A stretch of 64,000 bases of DNA, taken from assembly GCA_009996615.1 (NCBI GenBank), contig JAACZU010000002.1:1-64000 (forward strand). Reading direction: 5' to 3'. The stretch's first letter is position 1, and the number at the start of each line of letters is the position of its first letter. Source of the stretch: Rhodanobacteraceae bacterium. GTDB taxonomy: Bacteria; Pseudomonadota; Gammaproteobacteria; Xanthomonadales; Rhodanobacteraceae. Below the pieces are notes generated by a model. The model ran no database searches and had not been told where the DNA came from. It was given only the letters and a program-made list of their open reading frames with translations. Shown here piece after piece: positions 41,140 through 48,664 of the stretch. The position numbers and the translations under genes are program-made.

Positions 41140-41245
41140 GGCGCACCGTGCGCGCGGGTTGTTGCGGAGCGGCCACGCTAGCAGAAACCGCTTCGCCGCG
41201 GCCATCCACCCATCGGCGCGACGGCGCACCCACATCGCACGCTGA

Positions 41246-42608
41246 CCGTAGGGTGGGACACAGCCGCGCGACAGCGACCGGATGGAAGGCATCCCCACCA
41301 CGGCGAGTCCCACCATTCGCGCGGCGCCGATTCGTCTTCGCCCAAAAGCATCGCGCCTTCCGGCGCTCCCACAGAAGCAACGAAACCCCGCGTTCGCTGG
41401 GAGCGGCGCAAGCACCCACCGTAGGGTGGGACACAGCCGCGCGACAGCGACCGGATGGAAGGCATCCCCACCACGGCGAGTCCCACCATTCGCGCGGCGC
41501 CGATTCGTCTTCGCCCAAAAGCATCGCGCCTTCCGGCGCTCCCACAGAAGCAACGAAACCCCGCGTTCGCTGGGAGCGGCGCAAGCACCCACCGTAGGGT
41601 GGGACACAGCCGCGCGACAGCGACCGGATGGAAGGCATCCCCACCACGGCGAGTCCCACCATTCGCGCGGCGCCGATTCGTCTTCGCCCAAAAGCATCGC
41701 GCCTTCCGGCGCTCCCACAGAAGCAACGAAACCCCGCGTTCGCTGGGAGCGGCGCAAGCACCCACCGTAGGGTGGGACACAGCCGCGCGACAGCGACCGG
41801 ATGGAAGGCATCCCCACCACGGCGAGTCCCACCATTCGCGCGGCGCCGATTCGGCCTCGCCCAGAAGCATCGCGCCTTCCGGCGCTCCCACAGAAGCAAC
41901 GAAACCCCGCGTTCGCCGGGGGCGGCGCAAGCACCCACCGTAGGGTGGGACACAGCCGTGCGACGGCGCCCGGGCGGAGTGCATCCCCACCACGGCGAGT
42001 CCCACCATTCGCGCGGCGCCGATTCGGCCTCGCCCAGAAGCATCGCGCCTTCCGGCGCTCCCACAGAAGCAACGAAACCCCGCGTTCGCCGGGGGCGGCG
42101 CAAGCACCCACCGTAGGGTGGGACACAGCCGTGCGACGGCGCCCGGGCGGAGTGCATCCCCACCACGGCGAGTCCCACCATTCGCGCGGCGCCGATTCGG
42201 CCTCGCCCAGAAGCATCGCGCCTTCCGGCGCTCCCACAGAAGCAACGAAACCCCGCGTTCGCCGGGAGCGGTGCAAGCGCCCACCGTAGGGTGGGACACA
42301 GCCGCGCGACAGCGACTGGCCGGAGTGCATCCCCACCACGGCGAGTCCCACCATTCGCGCGGCGCCGATTCGTCTTCGCCCAAAAGCATCGCGCCTTCCG
42401 GCGCTCCCACAGAAGCAACGAAACCCCGCGTTCGCTGGGAGCGGCGCAAGCACCCACCGTAGGGTGGGACACAGCCGCGCGCCACGCTCCGGTTGAAATG
42501 TATCCCCACCACGGCGAGTCCCACCAAGCCCGCATGCACCGCCGCAGCCCGGAGGCCGCTCCTCTCCCGCCCCGGCAAAAGCATCGCGCCTCCCGGCGCT
42601 CCCACAAT
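41246..42608 (+). repeat. Tandem array of 173-bp composite palindromic units
   Basis: Units start at 41246, 41419, 41592, 41765, 41938, 42111, 42284 and 42457; every interval is exactly 173 bases. Units 1-3 are nearly identical and units 5-6 are nearly identical, while the last is diverged and about 150 bases long. Each unit has a first half bounded by GGGTGGGACACAGCC and GGCGAGTCCCACC (imperfectly complementary), a second half AAAAGCATCGCGCC..GGCGCTCCCACA (family A-like), and a 46-base spacer. No credible gene lies between 41140 and 42880; beyond 42608 I see only the promoter region of the next gene. Confidence 0.95.
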
Positions 42609-42880: not shown

Positions 42881-43954
42881 GTGGGCAGCGACAGGCTGGA
42901 AGCGGCTGACGACCAGGTGCAGATGATGTCTGCGGCAGCGACCGCGCGCGCGCAATTGCTGCCGCGCCAGCTCTCCGACGAGGAGGCCGCGTTGTTCGCC
43001 GCGGTCGGCACGCACCGCACGGTCCAACCCGGCGAACTGATCTTCCGCCGCGGCGAACTCGGCCGCAGCATGTTCATCGTCGAATCCGGCCAGATCCAGC
43101 TCGAATTCGGCGACGGCATGCCCGACAAGCTGATCGGCCCGCGCGAATTCTTCGGCGAACTGGTGCTGTTCATCGGCAGCCACACGCGCGTGGCCAACGC
43201 CGTCGCGGCGACCACCGCCGATCTGTGCATCGTCGACCAGCCGACCTTCGAGGGCCTCATCACCGCGCAGCCGCGCCTACTCGCGCAGTTCATGCGCCGC
43301 TCGTTCTCCTACCTCGTCGCCAGCGAGCAGCAGCTGATCCAGAGCCTCAAGCGCCGCAACGAGGACCTGATGGTCACGCTCGACTCGCTGCGCCAGACGC
43401 GCACGCAGCTGTCGACCGCGCAGCGCCTGGTGCAGACCGACGAGCTGTCGGGCCTGTGCAACCGGCGCGGCCTGTACCTGTTCCTCGAGCAACTGCCCGA
43501 ACAGCGCCTGCCCGGCACCGTGCTGGCCCTGCTGCTGGTCGACCTCGACCGCTTCAAGCAGATCAACGACCGCTGCGGCCACCTCGTCGGCGACCAGGTG
43601 CTGCGCGCGATCGCCGAGGAAGTGCAGAACGCCGCCTCGTCCACCGACCTGCCCTGCCGCCTCGGCGGCGACGAGTTCGCGCTGCTGATGCAGGTCACCG
43701 GCGAGGAGGAACTGTGCGCGCGCGCCACGCAGATCATCCACGCCGTGCGCATGCTGCGCTTCCCGACCGGCAGCGACAGCCTCGGCGTCAGCGTCAGCAT
43801 CGGCGGCAGCCTGTGCGCCGAGGACGCCGACTGGGCGGTCTGGTACAGCGACGCCGACGCGGCGCTGTACGAGGCCAAGGGGCGCGGCGGCGACGGCTAC
43901 GAGATCGTCGCCGGCACCGCCGTGGCGCACGAGGCCCTGCGCCGCGCCCTGTAA
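42881..43954 (+). CDS. Cyclic-nucleotide-binding GGDEF protein (diguanylate cyclase)
   Basis: This cytoplasmic protein of about 357 residues has an N-terminal cNMP-binding (Crp-like) domain (about 25-145, with PGELIFRRGELGRSMFIVESG and GPREFFGELVLFIG), a coiled linker and a GGDEF domain with intact RLGGDEF near residue 261. A clear RxxD inhibitory site is absent (SSTD at that position). It probably makes c-di-GMP under control of a cyclic nucleotide or by protein contact. The GTG at 42881 has GGGGAGG six bases upstream; a GTG three bases earlier and a TTG at 42854 are alternatives. It lies just upstream of the class III cyclase-like gene. Confidence 0.88.
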   Translation: MGSDRLEAADDQVQMMSAAATARAQLLPRQLSDEEAALFAAVGTHRTVQPGELIFRRGELGRSMFIVESGQIQLEFGDGMPDKLIGPREFFGELVLFIGSHTRVANAVAATTADLCIVDQPTFEGLITAQPRLLAQFMRRSFSYLVASEQQLIQSLKRRNEDLMVTLDSLRQTRTQLSTAQRLVQTDELSGLCNRRGLYLFLEQLPEQRLPGTVLALLLVDLDRFKQINDRCGHLVGDQVLRAIAEEVQNAASSTDLPCRLGGDEFALLMQVTGEEELCARATQIIHAVRMLRFPTGSDSLGVSVSIGGSLCAEDADWAVWYSDADAALYEAKGRGGDGYEIVAGTAVAHEALRRAL

Positions 43955-44123
43955 TCGCCGCGCGCGCAGGGTGAATCCATCCGGACCGGGCCGCGAGGCG
44001 CCGGTCCGACGCGTGGCAGGCCAGGCCGTCGATGGCGCCGCCACGCACCCGCGACCGGCGCACCGGCGCGGTGGAGCAGCAGACACGGCGCCGAAGTCGG
44101 GCGCCGCAGGAGCAAGCAAGGCC

Positions 44124-46799
44124 ATGAACGCGATCGCCACCACCGCCGCCTCCGCCCAGGCCCCGGCCAGCCCGCCGCTCGCCGCGCCGCTCCTGCGCAC
44201 GCTCGTGCTGAGCGACCTGGTCGACTCGACCGCGCTGATCGAGCGCCTCGGCGACCTGTGCGCGGCCGAACTGGTGCGCCGCCACGACCGCCTCGTGCGC
44301 ACGCTGGCGCCGCAGCACGGCGGCCGCGAGATCGACAAGACCGACGGCTTCCTCTTGCTGTTCGAACGCCCGATCCAGGCCGTCGCGTTCGCGCTCGCCT
44401 ACCAGCGCGACCTGAAGGCACTCGGCCGCGCCGAAGGCGTCGAGCTCGCCGCGCGCATCGGCATCCACGTCGGCGACGTGCTGACCTGGGACAATGCCCC
44501 GGCCGACGTCGCCCAGGGCGCCAAGCCGGTCGAGGTCGAGGGCCTGGTCAAGCCGATCACCGCGCGCCTGATGCAGCTCGCGCTGCCGAACCAGATCCTG
44601 CTTTCCGGCGTCGCCCACGCGCTCGCGCACCGCGCGCAGGGCGAACTCGGCGCGCAGCTGCGCACGGTGCGCTGGCGCACGCACGGCCGCTACCGCTTCA
44701 AGGGCATCCCCGACCCGATCCCGGTGTTCGAGGTCGGCGAGGAAGGCCTGGCGCCGCTGAAGGCGCCGCCGTGGTCCGGCAAGGCGCACCGCGAAGTGCC
44801 GTTCTGGCGCCGCCCGGCCAGCCTCGCGTTCGAGGCGCTGGCGCTGCTGGTGCTGCTCGTGGTGCCGGCCTGGTACCTGCTCAAGCCGGCGCCGGCGATC
44901 GCGTTCGCCGACCGCGACTGGGTCGTCGTCGGCGACCTCAAGAACCTGACCGACGAACCGGCCTTCAACGACTCGGTCGGCACCGCGTTCCGCATCGGCC
45001 TGGAGCAGTCGCGCTACGTCAACGTGCTGTCCGACCTGAAGGTGCGCCAGACGCTCGCGCTGATGAAGCGCGACCCGAACCAGACCGCGCTCGACCGCGC
45101 GGTCGGCTCCGAGATCGCGATCCGCGACGGCGCGCGCGCGCTGATCCTGCCGACCATCGCCGAGATCGGCGGCCGCGTGCGCGTGACCGCCGAGGTGATC
45201 GACCCGAACACGCAGACCACGGTCTGGTCCGAATCGGCCGACGGCACCGGCGCCGACTCGGTGCTGCCGTCGCTCGACCAGGTCAACCAGAAGCTGCGCG
45301 TGCGCCTCGGCGAGGCGCTGGCGACGGTGACGAAGGACTCCAAGCCTCTGGAGAAGGCGGCGACGAAGAATCTGGATGCGTTGCGGGCGTATTCGCTGGC
45401 AGCGTCGGAACACGCCAAGGGCAATGTCAAGCAGGCTATTTCTCTATATCGCCAAGCGATAACGTTCGATTCCCAGTTCGCGCTCGCTCGAATCGACTTA
45501 GGATCAGCGTTGAGCCTGACCAGCGCAGGCGATTTTAATGAGGCAATTTCCGAGTTTCGCAAGGCAGTGGCATTGAGTGATCGTCTTTCTGCGCGTGATG
45601 CGCTGTATGCGCAGGCGTGGCTTGCCAACTTCGAGAGCCCTCGGACAGCCTTGGAAAAATGGCGTTTGCTCGCGCGAATGTATCCTGATTTTACACGCGG
45701 TAGTGGCGGTGCAGGTTATTTTTCGTACCAATCCGCGAATGACTTCGACGCGGCAATTCTTGCAACCGAACAGAACGCGGTGGCAACAAACCCGCGACGC
45801 GGAACCGGAGACTATCTGCTCGCTACCTTATATCTCGGCAACGAGCGTTATTCGGACGCGCAGCGACGCTTTGCGTCAGCAGCAGATAACGGGGTTTCAA
45901 ATCAGGGCATCTACGAATCTTATCTTTACGCTGCGCAGCGCCAGTTTGGCCGTGCCGAGCAGATACTTGCCGGCGGCAAAGCCAGCGGTATCACCGGGGA
46001 TGATGAGATAAGCTGGTATCCACGTATAACGCTAGCACTCGATCGTGGCCATTGGGACGAGGCGCGAACTGCCGTCGCCCGAGCGCGTCAGGAAACCGCT
46101 ACGCTGAAAGGTGTGCTGCATGCGGAGTACACCTTGATCGAACTCGGCTTGCGCGCTCTGACCGAGCCGAAAGACGCATTCAAGCCGGTACTTGCGGATT
46201 ACCTGAAGACGTTGGCGGCGTCAAAGACGCGTGAGAGTCCCGACGCGCAGTTCAGTCTCTTGTTCGCCGCCTATCTGGCCGCACACGTTGATTCAGTCGA
46301 TCTGGCCCAGTCGGCACTGACTGGCGTCGCACCGGTCAGCCGCAGCGGAGATTACCCGTATCTGTCGAGCCTGCTGGCGGTGGTCGAGGCGGAACTTGCG
46401 CGCGCGAACGGCCAGCCACAGCAAACGGTCGCGATGCTGAAGCCGCATATCGACGGCCGCGAATACTATTTCAGCCACAGCGTGCTGATGGATGCGTACG
46501 CTGCGCAGGGCGACTACGCGAACGCGCTGGCCGAGGCGAACTGGCTCGCTCGGCACCGTGGCCGCGCCTACGTCGAGCAGTTCGGACAGATCAGGCTGCG
46601 TCCATTCAACGTCGCGTTGTCCGATCTGGCCCTGCTCAATGCGGCGGAGTTTTCAGCTCGATTAAACAAGCCCGATGTTGCACGCAAGGCCTTGGGCGAT
46701 CTGCGCCAAGCTTGGCCCGGCGCAGATCGACTCCCATTTCTGCAACAACGACTGCAGACCTTGGATGCAGGCTTGGCCGCAAAGCCTAGCGCGCCTTGA
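44124..46799 (+). CDS. Class III cyclase-like/TPR membrane protein, putative peptide-modification system cyclase
   Basis: The 891-residue protein has an N-terminal adenylate/guanylate cyclase domain (about 20-200, metal Asp residues in LSDLVDST and KTDGF), one membrane helix (about 235-253), a TolB-like region (about 255-400) and a long TPR-like C-terminus (from about 415). The Asn of the usual 'VN.AAR' catalytic segment is replaced (VKPITARL), so activity is uncertain. I recall this architecture as the 'putative peptide modification system cyclase' next to putative modified peptides in this bacterial group. GC falls sharply after about 45,420, within the TPR part. The last 14 bases overlap the convergent precursor gene. 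Confidence 0.82.
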   Translation: MNAIATTAASAQAPASPPLAAPLLRTLVLSDLVDSTALIERLGDLCAAELVRRHDRLVRTLAPQHGGREIDKTDGFLLLFERPIQAVAFALAYQRDLKALGRAEGVELAARIGIHVGDVLTWDNAPADVAQGAKPVEVEGLVKPITARLMQLALPNQILLSGVAHALAHRAQGELGAQLRTVRWRTHGRYRFKGIPDPIPVFEVGEEGLAPLKAPPWSGKAHREVPFWRRPASLAFEALALLVLLVVPAWYLLKPAPAIAFADRDWVVVGDLKNLTDEPAFNDSVGTAFRIGLEQSRYVNVLSDLKVRQTLALMKRDPNQTALDRAVGSEIAIRDGARALILPTIAEIGGRVRVTAEVIDPNTQTTVWSESADGTGADSVLPSLDQVNQKLRVRLGEALATVTKDSKPLEKAATKNLDALRAYSLAASEHAKGNVKQAISLYRQAITFDSQFALARIDLGSALSLTSAGDFNEAISEFRKAVALSDRLSARDALYAQAWLANFESPRTALEKWRLLARMYPDFTRGSGGAGYFSYQSANDFDAAILATEQNAVATNPRRGTGDYLLATLYLGNERYSDAQRRFASAADNGVSNQGIYESYLYAAQRQFGRAEQILAGGKASGITGDDEISWYPRITLALDRGHWDEARTAVARARQETATLKGVLHAEYTLIELGLRALTEPKDAFKPVLADYLKTLAASKTRESPDAQFSLLFAAYLAAHVDSVDLAQSALTGVAPVSRSGDYPYLSSLLAVVEAELARANGQPQQTVAMLKPHIDGREYYFSHSVLMDAYAAQGDYANALAEANWLARHRGRAYVEQFGQIRLRPFNVALSDLALLNAAEFSARLNKPDVARKALGDLRQAWPGADRLPFLQQRLQTLDAGLAAKPSAP

Positions 46800-47067
46800 A
46801 GCCGACCAACGGCACGTACATGTCCATTGCACTGCTGATCAAGTCCTCGGCTCTGCTCTGGAGCAGATCTTCATAGTGATCCTTGGCCGCGAGCGTGCGC
46901 GGGCACAGGCAGCTGGCTGGCAGGTGCACGATCGTCTTCTCATCGACGCCCAATTCGTACAGCGCCTTCGCCGGCGCCGTCTCGAACAGCGCACGGAAAT
47001 CGTCGTCCTTCGCGAGCTTCTCGAGCAGCGCGCGCGCCTGGTCCTGCGTCAGGTTCGTATCGGCCAT
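46786..47067 (-). CDS. Putative modified-peptide (RiPP-like) precursor with Nif11/NHLP-like leader
   Basis: This 93-residue protein begins with a helical leader, LTQDQARALLEKLAKDDDF then RALFETAPAKALYELGV. It resembles the Nif11/nitrile-hydratase-type leaders of RiPP precursors, in which a 'DFRALFE..P..AL.ELG' pattern is common. The C-terminal 50 residues contain the only cysteines, SCLCP (Cys53, Cys55). The ATG has a GGGGGGAT site upstream. Its neighbours are the cyclase-like protein (convergent, 14-base overlap) and a SagB-type dehydrogenase. I recall 'putative modified peptide' as the name of this family. The modification itself is unknown. Confidence 0.8.
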   Translation of the reverse strand: MADTNLTQDQARALLEKLAKDDDFRALFETAPAKALYELGVDEKTIVHLPASCLCPRTLAAKDHYEDLLQSRAEDLISSAMDMYVPLVGFKAR

Positions 47068-47158
47068 GGATCCCCCCGGATTGTGATGGGCGGTGAGAGT
47101 CTAGCCGCAACGCGGCCCGGAGTGTGACGCCGCGCACATTGCGCATCCGCCGCTGTCG

Positions 47159-47223
47159 GTGGGAGCGGCGGAAGCCGCGATGCCTTCGTGGCAGGAGAGC
47201 ATCGCGCCTGCCGGCGCTCCCAC
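47159..47223. repeat. Family A inverted pair
   Basis: The forward arm at 47159-47183 (GTGGGAGCGGCGGAAGCCGC plus GATGC) faces a reverse arm at 47199-47223 (GCATCGCGCCTGCCGGCGCT plus CCCAC) with a few mismatches. It lies between the precursor and dehydrogenase genes. Confidence 0.82.
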
Positions 47224-47284
47224 AGCCACCTTGCCGTCCGCAGGCGCGGCTTCAGCCGCGTTGCCCTGCCGCCCGGCGACGAAA

Positions 47285-47313
47285 GGCATCGGGACTGAAG
47301 TCCCTCCCACAAC
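47285..47313. repeat. Degenerate family A arm
   Basis: GGCATCGGGACTGAAGTCCC followed by TCCCACAAC is a diverged reverse arm of family A, itself a short hairpin. Confidence 0.6.
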
Positions 47314-47338
47314 GTCCGCACGGCGCCGCAAGGTGTTC

Positions 47339-47462
47339 GTGGGAGCGGCTTCAGCCGCGATGCTTTTACCGATCGGGCATCGCCGCGTAGAACACCATCC
47401 CCACCCAAACCCTCCCCTTGAAGGGGAGGGCTGAAAGGCATCGCGGCCGAAGCCGCTCCTAC
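47339..47462. repeat. Family A pair enclosing a family B element
   Basis: A forward family A arm (47339-47363) and a reverse arm (47438-47462) flank a reverse-oriented family B element at 47393-47430 (CACCATCCCCACCCAAACCC then CTCCCCTTGAAGGGGAGG). With the two preceding elements, repeats take up most of the 433-base gap between the precursor and the dehydrogenase. Confidence 0.82.
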
Positions 47463-47500
47463 CATAATCGCATCCTCGCCATTTCCACTCCGGAGCACCC

Positions 47501-48664
47501 ATGCGCCTGCGTCGCTGCCAGACCGTGCTGATCGAACCGCGTGAGCACAAGGAAATCGACCTGGAACTGCTGCTCGGCGCGACGCCGCGGCTGGCCTCCA
47601 CGCTGCGCTGGTTCGCGCTGGCGCCGCACCTGGAGCAGGAACAGCCGCTGGACGGCGCCGAGGTCGCGCTGCTCGGCGCGGTCTCGCCGAGCGACTGGAG
47701 CGATGCGGCGGAACTGGCGCGCACGCATGCGCCGGCGACGATCGAAAACCTGCTCGCGAAGGGCCTGCTGGTCGCCGACGATGCCGGCGCGCACGCGGCG
47801 GCCGACCGCGCCGCGCGCACACGCCACTGGCGCCCGCTGGCGGCGGTTGCGCACCGCCACCTGCGCTGGCGCGGCGTCGATACCGAGATCGAGAACGCGC
47901 GCCTGGGCGAGATCAGCGGCGGCGCGGTGCTCGACCACCTCGGCCCGCCGCCGCCGCCGGCGCTCGACTGCGCCGCGCCGGAACGGCGCCTCGGCCTGCC
48001 GCGCGGCAACGCCTCGGCGCTCGACGCGCTGCTCGACCGCCGCGTCACCTGCCGCAACTTCGACACCGCGCGTGCGCTGTCGCTGGCCGAGGTCGGCGCG
48101 GTGCTGTACCGCGCGTTCGGCGCGCGCACCGCGACCGAGGTCACCGGCGTGGCGGTGCTGAAGAAGGGCGTGCCGTCGGCCGGCGGCCTGCACCCGACCG
48201 AGGCCTACCTGCTGGTGCAGCGCGTCGACGGCCTCGCGCCGGGGCTGTACCACTACCAGCCGGTCGCGCACGCGCTCGATCCGCTGCGCGAGATGAGCGC
48301 CGAGGAGGCCGCCGAGCATGCGCGCCGCTTCGTCGCCGGCCAGCCGTGGTTCGCGCGCGCGCCGCTGCAGCTGATCATGGCCAGCCGCTTCGAGCGCAAC
48401 TTCTGGAAATACCGCAACCACGCCAAGGCGTACCGCGCGACGATCCTCGACGCCGGCCACCTGTCGCAGACGGTCTACCTCGCCGCAACCGAACTGGAGC
48501 TGGCCGCGTTCATCACCGCGGCGGTCAACGAAGGCGACATCGAAGACGCGCTCGGCCTCGACCCGATGGAACAGGGCGTACTCGCGGTCAGCGGCTTCGG
48601 CCACCGCGGCGCGCTGCGCGAGGAAGTCGAGTTCGACCCGCTCAATGCGGTGTGGCCGGCGTGA
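47501..48664 (+). CDS. SagB-type dehydrogenase, putative peptide maturation dehydrogenase
   Basis: The 387-residue protein has an N-terminal winged-helix-like region (about 30-110) and a nitroreductase-fold FMN domain (about 175-380) with CRNFDTARALSLAEVGAVLY, PSAGGLHPTEAYL and ATELELAAFITAAVNEGDIE. This is the pattern of SagB/ThcOx dehydrogenases, which oxidise azolines to azoles in RiPPs. In this group I recall the family as 'putative peptide maturation dehydrogenase'. The CATAAT at 47463 may be its -10 box. No YcaO cyclodehydratase is in the window, so its substrate on the peptide is open. Confidence 0.85.
   Translation: MRLRRCQTVLIEPREHKEIDLELLLGATPRLASTLRWFALAPHLEQEQPLDGAEVALLGAVSPSDWSDAAELARTHAPATIENLLAKGLLVADDAGAHAAADRAARTRHWRPLAAVAHRHLRWRGVDTEIENARLGEISGGAVLDHLGPPPPPALDCAAPERRLGLPRGNASALDALLDRRVTCRNFDTARALSLAEVGAVLYRAFGARTATEVTGVAVLKKGVPSAGGLHPTEAYLLVQRVDGLAPGLYHYQPVAHALDPLREMSAEEAAEHARRFVAGQPWFARAPLQLIMASRFERNFWKYRNHAKAYRATILDAGHLSQTVYLAATELELAAFITAAVNEGDIEDALGLDPMEQGVLAVSGFGHRGALREEVEFDPLNAVWPA

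What the first reader, a model, noticed from the sequence alone, without database searches (positions are those of the whole stretch)
42881..48664. Uncharacterised RiPP-like peptide-modification locus: GGDEF sensor, cyclase-TPR protein, Nif11-like precursor, SagB-type dehydrogenase
Seen: a 93-residue precursor with a Nif11/NHLP-like leader and a Cys-x-Cys core region lies between a cyclase-like/TPR membrane protein and a SagB-type flavin dehydrogenase, with a cNMP-binding diguanylate cyclase directly upstream. Known: SagB enzymes oxidise azolines made by YcaO enzymes. Inference: with no YcaO here, the dehydrogenase may act on the peptide by itself or on another modification. A nucleotide cyclase-like protein plus a cNMP-binding GGDEF suggests the peptide system is tied to cyclic-nucleotide signalling. 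I recall bioinformatic family names for the three core parts but no experimental product.
Basis: partly seen in the sequence, partly recalled or inferred. Interest (0 to 1): 0.9.

Follow-up and report, generated by a model that had tools for sequence, protein, structure and literature searches.

The report
Polymorphic peptide-receptor cyclic-GMP signalling locus
A four-gene bacterial locus pairs a small, probably enzyme-modified peptide with a membrane receptor that makes cyclic GMP; peptide and receptor half are swapped together between close relatives, which suggests that this known second-messenger pathway listens to a peptide signal.

Summary
The genes are real and match three NCBIfam families (TIGR04509 peptide, TIGR04510 cyclase, TIGR04511 dehydrogenase), which occur in the same 43 of 200 genomes of the order. 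The GGDEF gene belongs to the module: 42 of those 43 genomes carry it, against 3 of the other 157. GGDEF and cyclase are orthologues of Xanthomonas XC_0249/XC_0250, a published cGMP-to-c-di-GMP pathway (PMC3770947) whose main text mentions neither peptide nor dehydrogenase. The new observation is a mosaic. In 11 of 16 independent close pairs DGC and cytoplasmic cyclase stay 90-99% identical, while the periplasmic TPR half falls to 27-62%, the peptide to 25-78% and the dehydrogenase to 30-97%; most pairs' flanks are conserved again. In 22 Xanthomonas genomes, 5 sensor types pair one-to-one with 5 peptide types. Where the dehydrogenase is constant, the peptide's C-terminal half still changes with the distal TPR half. 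This is the signature of polymorphic pheromone systems such as ComQXP. Best reading: the peptide is the ligand of a receptor guanylate cyclase, and the dehydrogenase matures it. Modification, export and binding are inferred; nothing was assayed.

The parts
42881..43954 (+). cNMP-binding + GGDEF diguanylate cyclase (XC_0249 orthologue): the predicted cGMP effector
   Evidence: Pfam PF00027 and PF00990; best PDB match 5h5o, listed as 'Diguanylate cyclase', E 8.8e-25; 5 of the 7 residue positions that An et al. name for cGMP contact are kept (F73, E90, L91, H98, E146; V142 is L, N145 is S); GGDEF motif intact
43971..46799 (+). guanylate cyclase-TPR membrane protein (XC_0250 orthologue, TIGR04510); likely start 44124
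   Evidence: TIGR04510 895 bits; D41, D71, A150, L157, A161 of XC_0250 kept, L73 is F
44166..44816 (+). cytoplasmic class III cyclase part: the output module, conserved between alleles of relatives
   Evidence: PDB matches to class III cyclases 5d0g/4wp3; identity profile in relatives
44817..44882 (+). predicted single transmembrane helix, N-in/C-out (coordinates approximate)
   Evidence: hydropathy: one segment in 106 of 123 family members, basic N side in 121 of 123; here read from the sequence
44883..46796 (+). predicted periplasmic sensor half (alpha/beta domain, then TPR superhelix): hypervariable between alleles of relatives
   Evidence: AlphaFold2 mean pLDDT 94.5; TPR matches in Pfam and the PDB; mosaic in relatives
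46786..47067 (-). 93-aa NHLP-related precursor peptide (TIGR04509)
   Evidence: 57.6 bits, cut-off 34; in relatives it co-varies with the sensor half
47068..47500 (.). divergent intergenic region between peptide gene (-) and dehydrogenase gene (+); promoters presumably here (inference)
   Evidence: gene positions; sequence read
47501..48664 (+). SagB-type FMN dehydrogenase (TIGR04511), the putative peptide-maturing enzyme

Best explanation
The locus encodes a polymorphic peptide-signalling circuit. (1) The small NHLP-type precursor is made in the cytoplasm [gene shown; expression not shown]. (2) The SagB-type flavoenzyme binds it, perhaps by its N-terminal half, and oxidises it without a YcaO partner [enzyme fold and lack of YcaO shown; reaction inferred]. 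(3) The peptide or its C-terminal part reaches the periplasm or medium by an unidentified route [inferred]. (4) The periplasmic TPR half of the membrane guanylate cyclase binds it with allele-specific fit [inferred from co-variation, which is shown]. (5) Binding changes cGMP synthesis by the cytoplasmic domain [inferred; cGMP synthesis was shown for the orthologue XC_0250 by An et al. 2013]. (6) cGMP binds the cNMP domain of the neighbouring diguanylate cyclase and raises c-di-GMP, hence biofilm and gene expression [shown for XC_0249 by An et al.; inferred here]. The output parts are constant and the recognition parts are swapped as a cassette, as in ComQXPA of Bacillus.
Against: No wet evidence for modification, export or binding. 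None of 167 peptides has a hydrophobic, signal-like N terminus, and the ten commonest recurring neighbour families of 43 loci include no exporter. Peptide and sensor genes are neighbours, so linkage alone would make them travel together; selection is inferred from the sharp boundary and the old alleles. 'Leader follows dehydrogenase' was not supported by partial correlation (leader~DH|sensor .09 and .16; leader~sensor|DH .40 and .48); in the g27 type with subtypes dN/dS of leader (.43) and rest (.37) are alike, and the leader also follows the distal TPR half with rho .50. The dehydrogenase also tracks the peptide strongly overall (rho .87 in Xanthomonas). Not every close pair is mosaic: 5 of 16 are not, and with nearest pairs first only 3 of 17 in g27 and 3 of 9 in Xanthomonas are; in g27 the types mostly follow the tree (25 changes, minimum 22, shuffles 37-40) and peptide-cyclase also passes Mantel (rho .20, 0 of 2000). 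An et al. report that the isolated cyclase domain is active and restores biofilm, so no ligand is needed for catalysis. Eight genomes outside the order have peptide and dehydrogenase without a detected cyclase. The window's genome has no relative near enough to show the mosaic (closest DGC .79).
Confidence: 0.6

Rival explanations
1. Antimicrobial RiPP with built-in self-recognition. The matured peptide is a bacteriocin-like weapon, and the TPR half of the cyclase senses self or rival peptide, so that cGMP/c-di-GMP triggers a protective state; the polymorphism is an arms race.
For: Same allele pattern expected; peptide + dehydrogenase without receptor, with five tandem peptides, in Kribbella (L187) and with one in each of three Streptomyces, two of these four loci with an MFS transporter next door; the nearest published cluster, Os1348 of Pseudomonas sp. 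Os17, affects antibiotic activity (PMC7726476, passages).
Against: The ten commonest recurring neighbour families in 43 loci are housekeeping genes, none an exporter; XC_0250/XC_0249 mutants are published with biofilm and virulence phenotypes.
Confidence: 0.17
2. The TPR half recognises the precursor or the dehydrogenase inside the cell as an assembly platform or sensor of peptide processing; no cell-to-cell signal exists.
For: TPRs often bind protein partners (general knowledge); strict co-occurrence.
Against: Predicted topology puts the TPR half outside the cytoplasm: basic N side in 121 of 123 (hydropathy only). Adaptation to a self-made cytoplasmic partner would not by itself explain alleles scattered over the species tree in Xanthomonas.
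Confidence: 0.1
3. The sensor half varies because something external (phage, toxin, plant or predator molecule) selects on it, and the peptide varies only because it is linked.
For: Hypervariable surface domains are commonly driven by phage or host (general knowledge); the genes are adjacent.
Against: In the 11-locus group the change covers distal TPR and peptide but not the dehydrogenase, though the first two are the adjacent ends; within that type peptide dN/dS is .42 at background dS, against .07 for DH and .10 for DGC; duplicated cyclases carry their own divergent peptides while sharing one DH in L153, L160, L167 and L196.
Confidence: 0.1
4. A conventional azole (TOMM/LAP) natural-product cluster in which YcaO is missing or unlinked.
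For: SagB/McbC-like dehydrogenase; Cys in 146 of 167 precursors.
Against: No YcaO found in the window's genome and in only 2 of 43 trio genomes; 21 of 167 peptides have no Cys.
Confidence: 0.03

Closest known systems
XC_0249/XC_0250 cGMP to c-di-GMP pathway of Xanthomonas campestris (An et al. 2013, PMC3770947; abstract, Results part 1 of 2, Discussion and found passages read)
   Same: Orthologous DGC and cyclase genes side by side; 886 aa and named residues at the same numbers in two Xanthomonas relatives
   Different: The main text has no occurrence of 'peptide', 'dehydrogenase' or 'nitroreductase' and calls the TPR domain of uncharacterised function; no mosaic of the sensor half in the parts read. 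X. campestris itself was not among my named loci
ComQXPA quorum sensing of Bacillus (PMC5385187, passages read)
   Same: Modifying enzyme, peptide and sensor half of the receptor highly polymorphic; output half and effector conserved; precursor conserved at the N end and variable at the C end
   Different: Other proteins: isoprenyl transferase (recalled) and histidine kinase there, flavoenzyme and guanylate cyclase here; different phylum; no experiment here
Os1348-Os1351 cluster of Pseudomonas sp. Os17 (PMC7726476, passages read)
   Same: NHLP-like small precursor and a SagB-type dehydrogenase; the authors found no sagC or sagD homologue
   Different: That cluster also has an acetyltransferase and a HEXXH-motif protein; no cyclase or GGDEF in the part of its gene table that I saw; its structure 6lk7 matches our peptide profile only at E 0.43
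McbC / ThcOx / BmdC thiazoline oxidases
RRNPP peptide receptors (Rap and kin)
Animal receptor guanylate cyclases for peptides (recalled, not searched)
   Same: Extracellular peptide-binding part, one helix, cytoplasmic guanylate cyclase
   Different: No TPRs, unrelated ligands, eukaryotes

Membership tests
NCBIfam trio TIGR04509/TIGR04510/TIGR04511 | each protein over its curated score | tested here: met
   57.6/34, 895/400, 476.7/240 bits
NCBIfam trio TIGR04509/TIGR04510/TIGR04511 | the three genes occur together | tested here: met
   same 43 of 200 genomes
XC_0249/XC_0250 cGMP pathway | adjacent cNMP-GGDEF and class III cyclase-TPR genes | tested here: met
   neighbours in 39 of 43 trio genomes
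XC_0249/XC_0250 cGMP pathway | residues named for cGMP binding and cGMP synthesis | tested here: inconclusive
   window DGC 5 of 7, cyclase 5 of 6; N145, part of the diad the paper stresses, is S here, E146 kept (the offset was chosen to maximise matches)
XC_0249/XC_0250 cGMP pathway | guanylate cyclase and cGMP-stimulated DGC activity | not testable with these tools
   needs enzyme assays
RiPP | genetically encoded precursor next to a modifying enzyme | tested here: met
RiPP | post-translational modification and a mature product | not testable with these tools
   needs mass spectrometry
TOMM/LAP azole peptides | YcaO cyclodehydratase | tested here: not met
   0 matches in G000, 2 of 43 trio genomes (E <= 1e-6)
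Nif11 (PF07862) | score over the gathering cut-off | tested here: not met
   13.8 against 23.8 bits
ComQXPA-like pheromone system (works like) | peptide, receptor input half and modifying enzyme polymorphic, output conserved | tested here: met
   (in relatives; the window itself has no near relative)
ComQXPA (member) | histidine-kinase receptor and prenyltransferase ComQ | tested here: not met
   no such domain among the matches of the four proteins
RRNPP (member) | TPR fold like Rap | tested here: inconclusive
RRNPP (member) | cytoplasmic receptor | tested here: not met
   by prediction only: N-in/C-out, basic N side in 121 of 123

The most novel reading that the evidence does not exclude
A bacterial receptor guanylate cyclase for a ribosomal, flavoenzyme-matured peptide pheromone: a Gram-negative 'pherotype' system in which dozens of peptide-receptor alleles, some older than the species that carry them, let Lysobacterales recognise kin or neighbours and set cGMP, then c-di-GMP, accordingly. 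Soil Actinobacteria that hold only the peptide and enzyme genes would be speaking to, or jamming, their Lysobacter neighbours.
Probability: 0.4. Interest if true: 0.95.

Novelty: new variant of a known kind. Interest (0 to 1): 0.85.

Why it matters
An et al. 2013 proved a cGMP to c-di-GMP pathway in Xanthomonas but left the TPR domain uncharacterised. The two genes next door in its relatives, annotated only by bioinformatic names, now look like the signal and the enzyme that matures it. If true, this is a peptide signalling class with a receptor guanylate cyclase, widespread in Stenotrophomonas (dehydrogenase in 90 of 91 genomes of genus g27) and Xanthomonas (29 of 35 in g47, 26 near full length). 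It would give the orphan dehydrogenase family a job and make kin-specific control of biofilm directly testable by a peptide-swap experiment.

Tried and rejected
Cys-x-Cys as the modified core: rejected as a family feature (4 of 55, 19 of 167). A pseudo-cyclase: suspected from my alignment, but An et al. state that the transition-state residues of XC_0250 are substituted and that the domain still makes cGMP. An unlinked YcaO: not supported. Leader follows dehydrogenase, core follows receptor: seen in single pairs with constant DH and in the 12 pairs, but the leader half was not supported by partial correlations nor by the dN/dS. A conserved exporter beside the locus: neighbour genes of 43 loci were clustered; the ten commonest families were annotated and are isocitrate lyase, malate synthase and a LysR regulator (34, 34 and 33 loci, not the window), Mg-chelatase, BMFP, P-II, biotin carboxylase, carboxyl transferase, acyl-CoA dehydrogenase and cytochrome c; rarer neighbours and unlinked exporters were not examined, and my gene caller misses some genes. 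The hybrid kinase beside peptide+DH in Duganella/Rugamonas: its input part is only moderately more variable than the rest, so it is no second mosaic case. Folds that did not appear in the second-look lists are not claimed absent. Literature: searches listed no paper in the held PMC library that, by title, abstract start or the parts read, joins the pathway with a RiPP or reports the polymorphism; of the six papers that name XC_0249 or XC_0250 only PMC3770947 was read, in part; subscription papers and preprints were not searched.

Rows dropped or chosen before counts: one search used 92 of 126 loci held (those with all four genes; several genomes were held twice); one search set aside 7 of 46 close pairs as same allele or genome; one search left out cyclases under 780 aa (123 of 128 used); the 13 pairs were picked; fetched 60 loci, chosen mainly by score and contig state, not at random; one search is a quick tree (7 of 19 inner branches open, one long row). 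The two peptide subtypes were named by eye from the peptides listed, after one search had already shown one such pair; the 77 and 12 pairs share some genomes.
Full report
Observation. The four genes are as described, with one addition: the precursor gene lies on the minus strand, tail to tail with the cyclase gene and head to head with the dehydrogenase gene. The curated NCBIfam models score far above their cut-offs: TIGR04510 cyclase 895 bits, TIGR04509 peptide 57.6, TIGR04511 dehydrogenase 476.7. The GGDEF protein has a cNMP-binding domain.

Co-occurrence. In the same draw of 200 genomes of the order, each of the three families is over its cut-off in 43 genomes, and the three lists of 43 are identical (compared by eye; a 44th dehydrogenase match, G082, is below cut-off). 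The DGC orthologue (E <= 1e-50) is in 42 of the 43 and in 3 of the other 157; it is the upstream neighbour of the cyclase in 39 of 43, elsewhere in the genome in G014, G024 and G073, and not found in G091. Across the class the dehydrogenase was found in 5 of 369 genomes, all of this order. The peptide gene runs opposite to the cyclase gene in 43 of 43 loci that hold both; one search has one exception (L163). The dehydrogenase runs with the cyclase except in 5 of 42 loci with all three. In 34 of 43 loci examined the module sits next to isocitrate lyase and malate synthase genes, but not in the window.

Identity of the DGC-cyclase pair. The best PDB match of the DGC is the cNMP domain 5h5o. An et al. 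2013 (PMC3770947; abstract, Results part 1 of 2, Discussion and passages read) showed that XC_0250 makes cGMP and that XC_0249 binds cGMP and then makes more c-di-GMP. Xanthomonas arboricola (L215) and Xanthomonas sp. Leaf131 (L202) carry, in the same locus as peptide and dehydrogenase, a cyclase of exactly the 886 aa given for XC_0250 with D41, D71, L73, A150, L157 and A161 at the stated numbers, and a DGC with 7 of 7 named contact residues. The window's proteins keep 5 of 6 and 5 of 7. X. campestris itself was not among the named loci; the identification rests on close orthologues. The paper's main text does not contain the words peptide, dehydrogenase or nitroreductase.

The mosaic. Comparing 92 loci with all four genes (of 126 held), many pairs with nearly identical DGC keep 90-100% identity over about the first 240 residues of the cyclase and then drop, just after the transmembrane helix, to 8-60% in most segments. 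DNA identity in pairs chosen from these shows an island of about 3.5 kb, sensor half to dehydrogenase: L097/L105 have 78-98% (mostly 88 or more) over the 8 kb before, 38-71% inside, and 82-98% after it except in the last window. In four pairs with constant dehydrogenase the island is shorter (1.3-2.3 kb). In L174/L192 the flanks are conserved only near the module. L092/L208 share one type and show no island. Of 16 independent close pairs, 11 have a sensor identity under 65%; over these 11, DGC is .91-.99, cyclase part .90-.99, sensor .27-.62, peptide .25-.78, dehydrogenase .30-.97. Control: the flank beyond the dehydrogenase in 22 Xanthomonas loci has a median DNA identity of .89 within and .88 between sensor types.

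Wider sample. The dehydrogenase is in 90 of 91 genomes of genus g27 and 29 of 35 of genus g47. By shared contig lengths, g27 is Stenotrophomonas (L096 and L194 110,461 bases; L227 and L205 537,472) and g47 Xanthomonas (L258 and L202 264,498; L267 and L215 105,503). In 74 loci from these genera (60 newly fetched, 14 earlier) all four genes are present. Xanthomonas, 22 loci, 231 pairs: median identity DGC .90, cytoplasmic cyclase .95, sensor .32, peptide .35, dehydrogenase .47; Spearman rho peptide-sensor .92, peptide-dehydrogenase .87, peptide-cytoplasmic cyclase .08, peptide-DGC .32. Sensor types and peptide types, each clustered alone at 65%, are 5 and 5 and form only 5 combinations; on the DGC+cyclase tree (quick, partly unresolved) the type changes 8 times where 4 would suffice and ten label shuffles gave 8-9, and one clade for the commonest type is rejected (AU p 2.8e-5). 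The nearest relative by DGC+cyclase carries the same sensor type in 13 of 22. In g27 there are 23 sensor types and 21 peptide types in 23 combinations among 52 loci; there the type mostly follows the tree (25 changes, minimum 22, shuffles 37-40), and the peptide-sensor rho is .70. Pairs are not independent; Mantel permutations reached the peptide-sensor value 0 times in 2000 in both genera, and the peptide-cyclase value 472 times in Xanthomonas but 0 times in g27 (rho .20).

Separating receptor from enzyme. In 11 g27 loci with one dehydrogenase type (.93-.98), two peptide subtypes exist. Median identities within and between subtypes are alike for DGC (.95/.95), cyclase 1-240 (.96/.96), cyclase 241-400 (.98/.98) and dehydrogenase (.97/.96), but differ for cyclase 401-560 (.98/.78) and 561-end (.92/.58; ranges .85-.97 and .56-.61). 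With DGC and dehydrogenase at least 90% identical, the peptide C-terminal part follows the distal TPR half with rho .85 (77 pairs) and .86 (12 pairs), against .31 and -.05 for the dehydrogenase; the leader follows it with .50 and .01. Over all pairs within each genus, partial correlations give core~sensor|DH .57 and .58, core~DH|sensor .36 and .49, leader~sensor|DH .40 and .48, leader~DH|sensor .09 and .16. Within one locus, L160 has two cyclase genes with identical cytoplasmic parts, sensors 38% and peptides 40% alike, and one dehydrogenase; L167 (.92/.36/.35), L153 and L196 are similar. Within types, median dS in Xanthomonas is larger in sensor (1.3-1.7), peptide (.8-1.1) and dehydrogenase (1.1-1.9) than in DGC and cyclase (.5-.6), as expected for alleles older than the species; peptide dN/dS is .10-.13 there, so the peptide is under constraint, and .42 in the g27 type with subtypes, where DH is .07 and DGC .10.

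Outside the order. Peptide and dehydrogenase without cyclase in the locus occur in three Streptomyces, one Kribbella (five tandem peptides), three Duganella and one Rugamonas; in none of the 8 genomes was the cyclase found at E <= 1e-40 (the tool warns that nothing rang in that call, but the same model found 43 genomes over cut-off). The actinobacterial dehydrogenases are 75-78% identical to that of Lysobacter sp. Root690, their peptides only about 44-53% identical to the best relatives held: this suggests transfer between phyla followed by fast peptide change.

Novelty. The peptide-dehydrogenase-cyclase trio is known as database families, the DGC-cyclase pair as a published pathway. The searches listed under Tried and rejected showed no paper in the held library that joins them or reports the polymorphism. 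It works like ComQXPA (PMC5385187 passages) but no ComQXPA part was found in it, so it is not filed as a member.

Noticed in passing
window 41245-42526: Array of 7.4 copies of a 173-bp unit (96% matches) just upstream of the DGC gene; open on both strands, which gives spurious long ORFs.
   Followed up: no
window 47150-47470: Several similar short palindromic-looking repeats in the peptide-dehydrogenase intergenic region, seen by eye in the sequence; not analysed.
   Followed up: no
L173, L177, L180, L187: Streptomyces and Kribbella carry peptide + dehydrogenase without cyclase or DGC in the locus; dehydrogenase 75-78% identical to Lysobacter sp. Root690; MFS transporter next to it in L177 and L187.
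   Followed up: partly
L203, L204, L207, L216: Duganella/Rugamonas carry peptide + dehydrogenase beside a large gene which in L204 and L207 is a hybrid histidine kinase with a Reg_prop propeller.
   Followed up: partly
L135:2402-5002 (-): A relative of the sensor half is joined to a Ser/Thr protein kinase domain instead of a cyclase.
   Followed up: no
L134 (G091): Five tandem peptide genes with a degenerate cyclase domain; no DGC in the genome at E <= 1e-50: the output side seems lost while peptides multiplied.
   Followed up: partly
L092-L134, 34 of 43 loci examined (not the window): The module sits beside isocitrate lyase, malate synthase and a LysR regulator, a fixed chromosomal site in most relatives.
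   Followed up: partly
G659, G676, G678 (genus of Xanthomonas): Dehydrogenase matches are partial or split, so the gene looks broken in some species.
   Followed up: no
G082:C51:89992-94223: A SagB-type dehydrogenase below the TIGR04511 cut-off lies about 2.6 kb from a YcaO gene: probably an ordinary azole cluster and a useful contrast.
   Followed up: no
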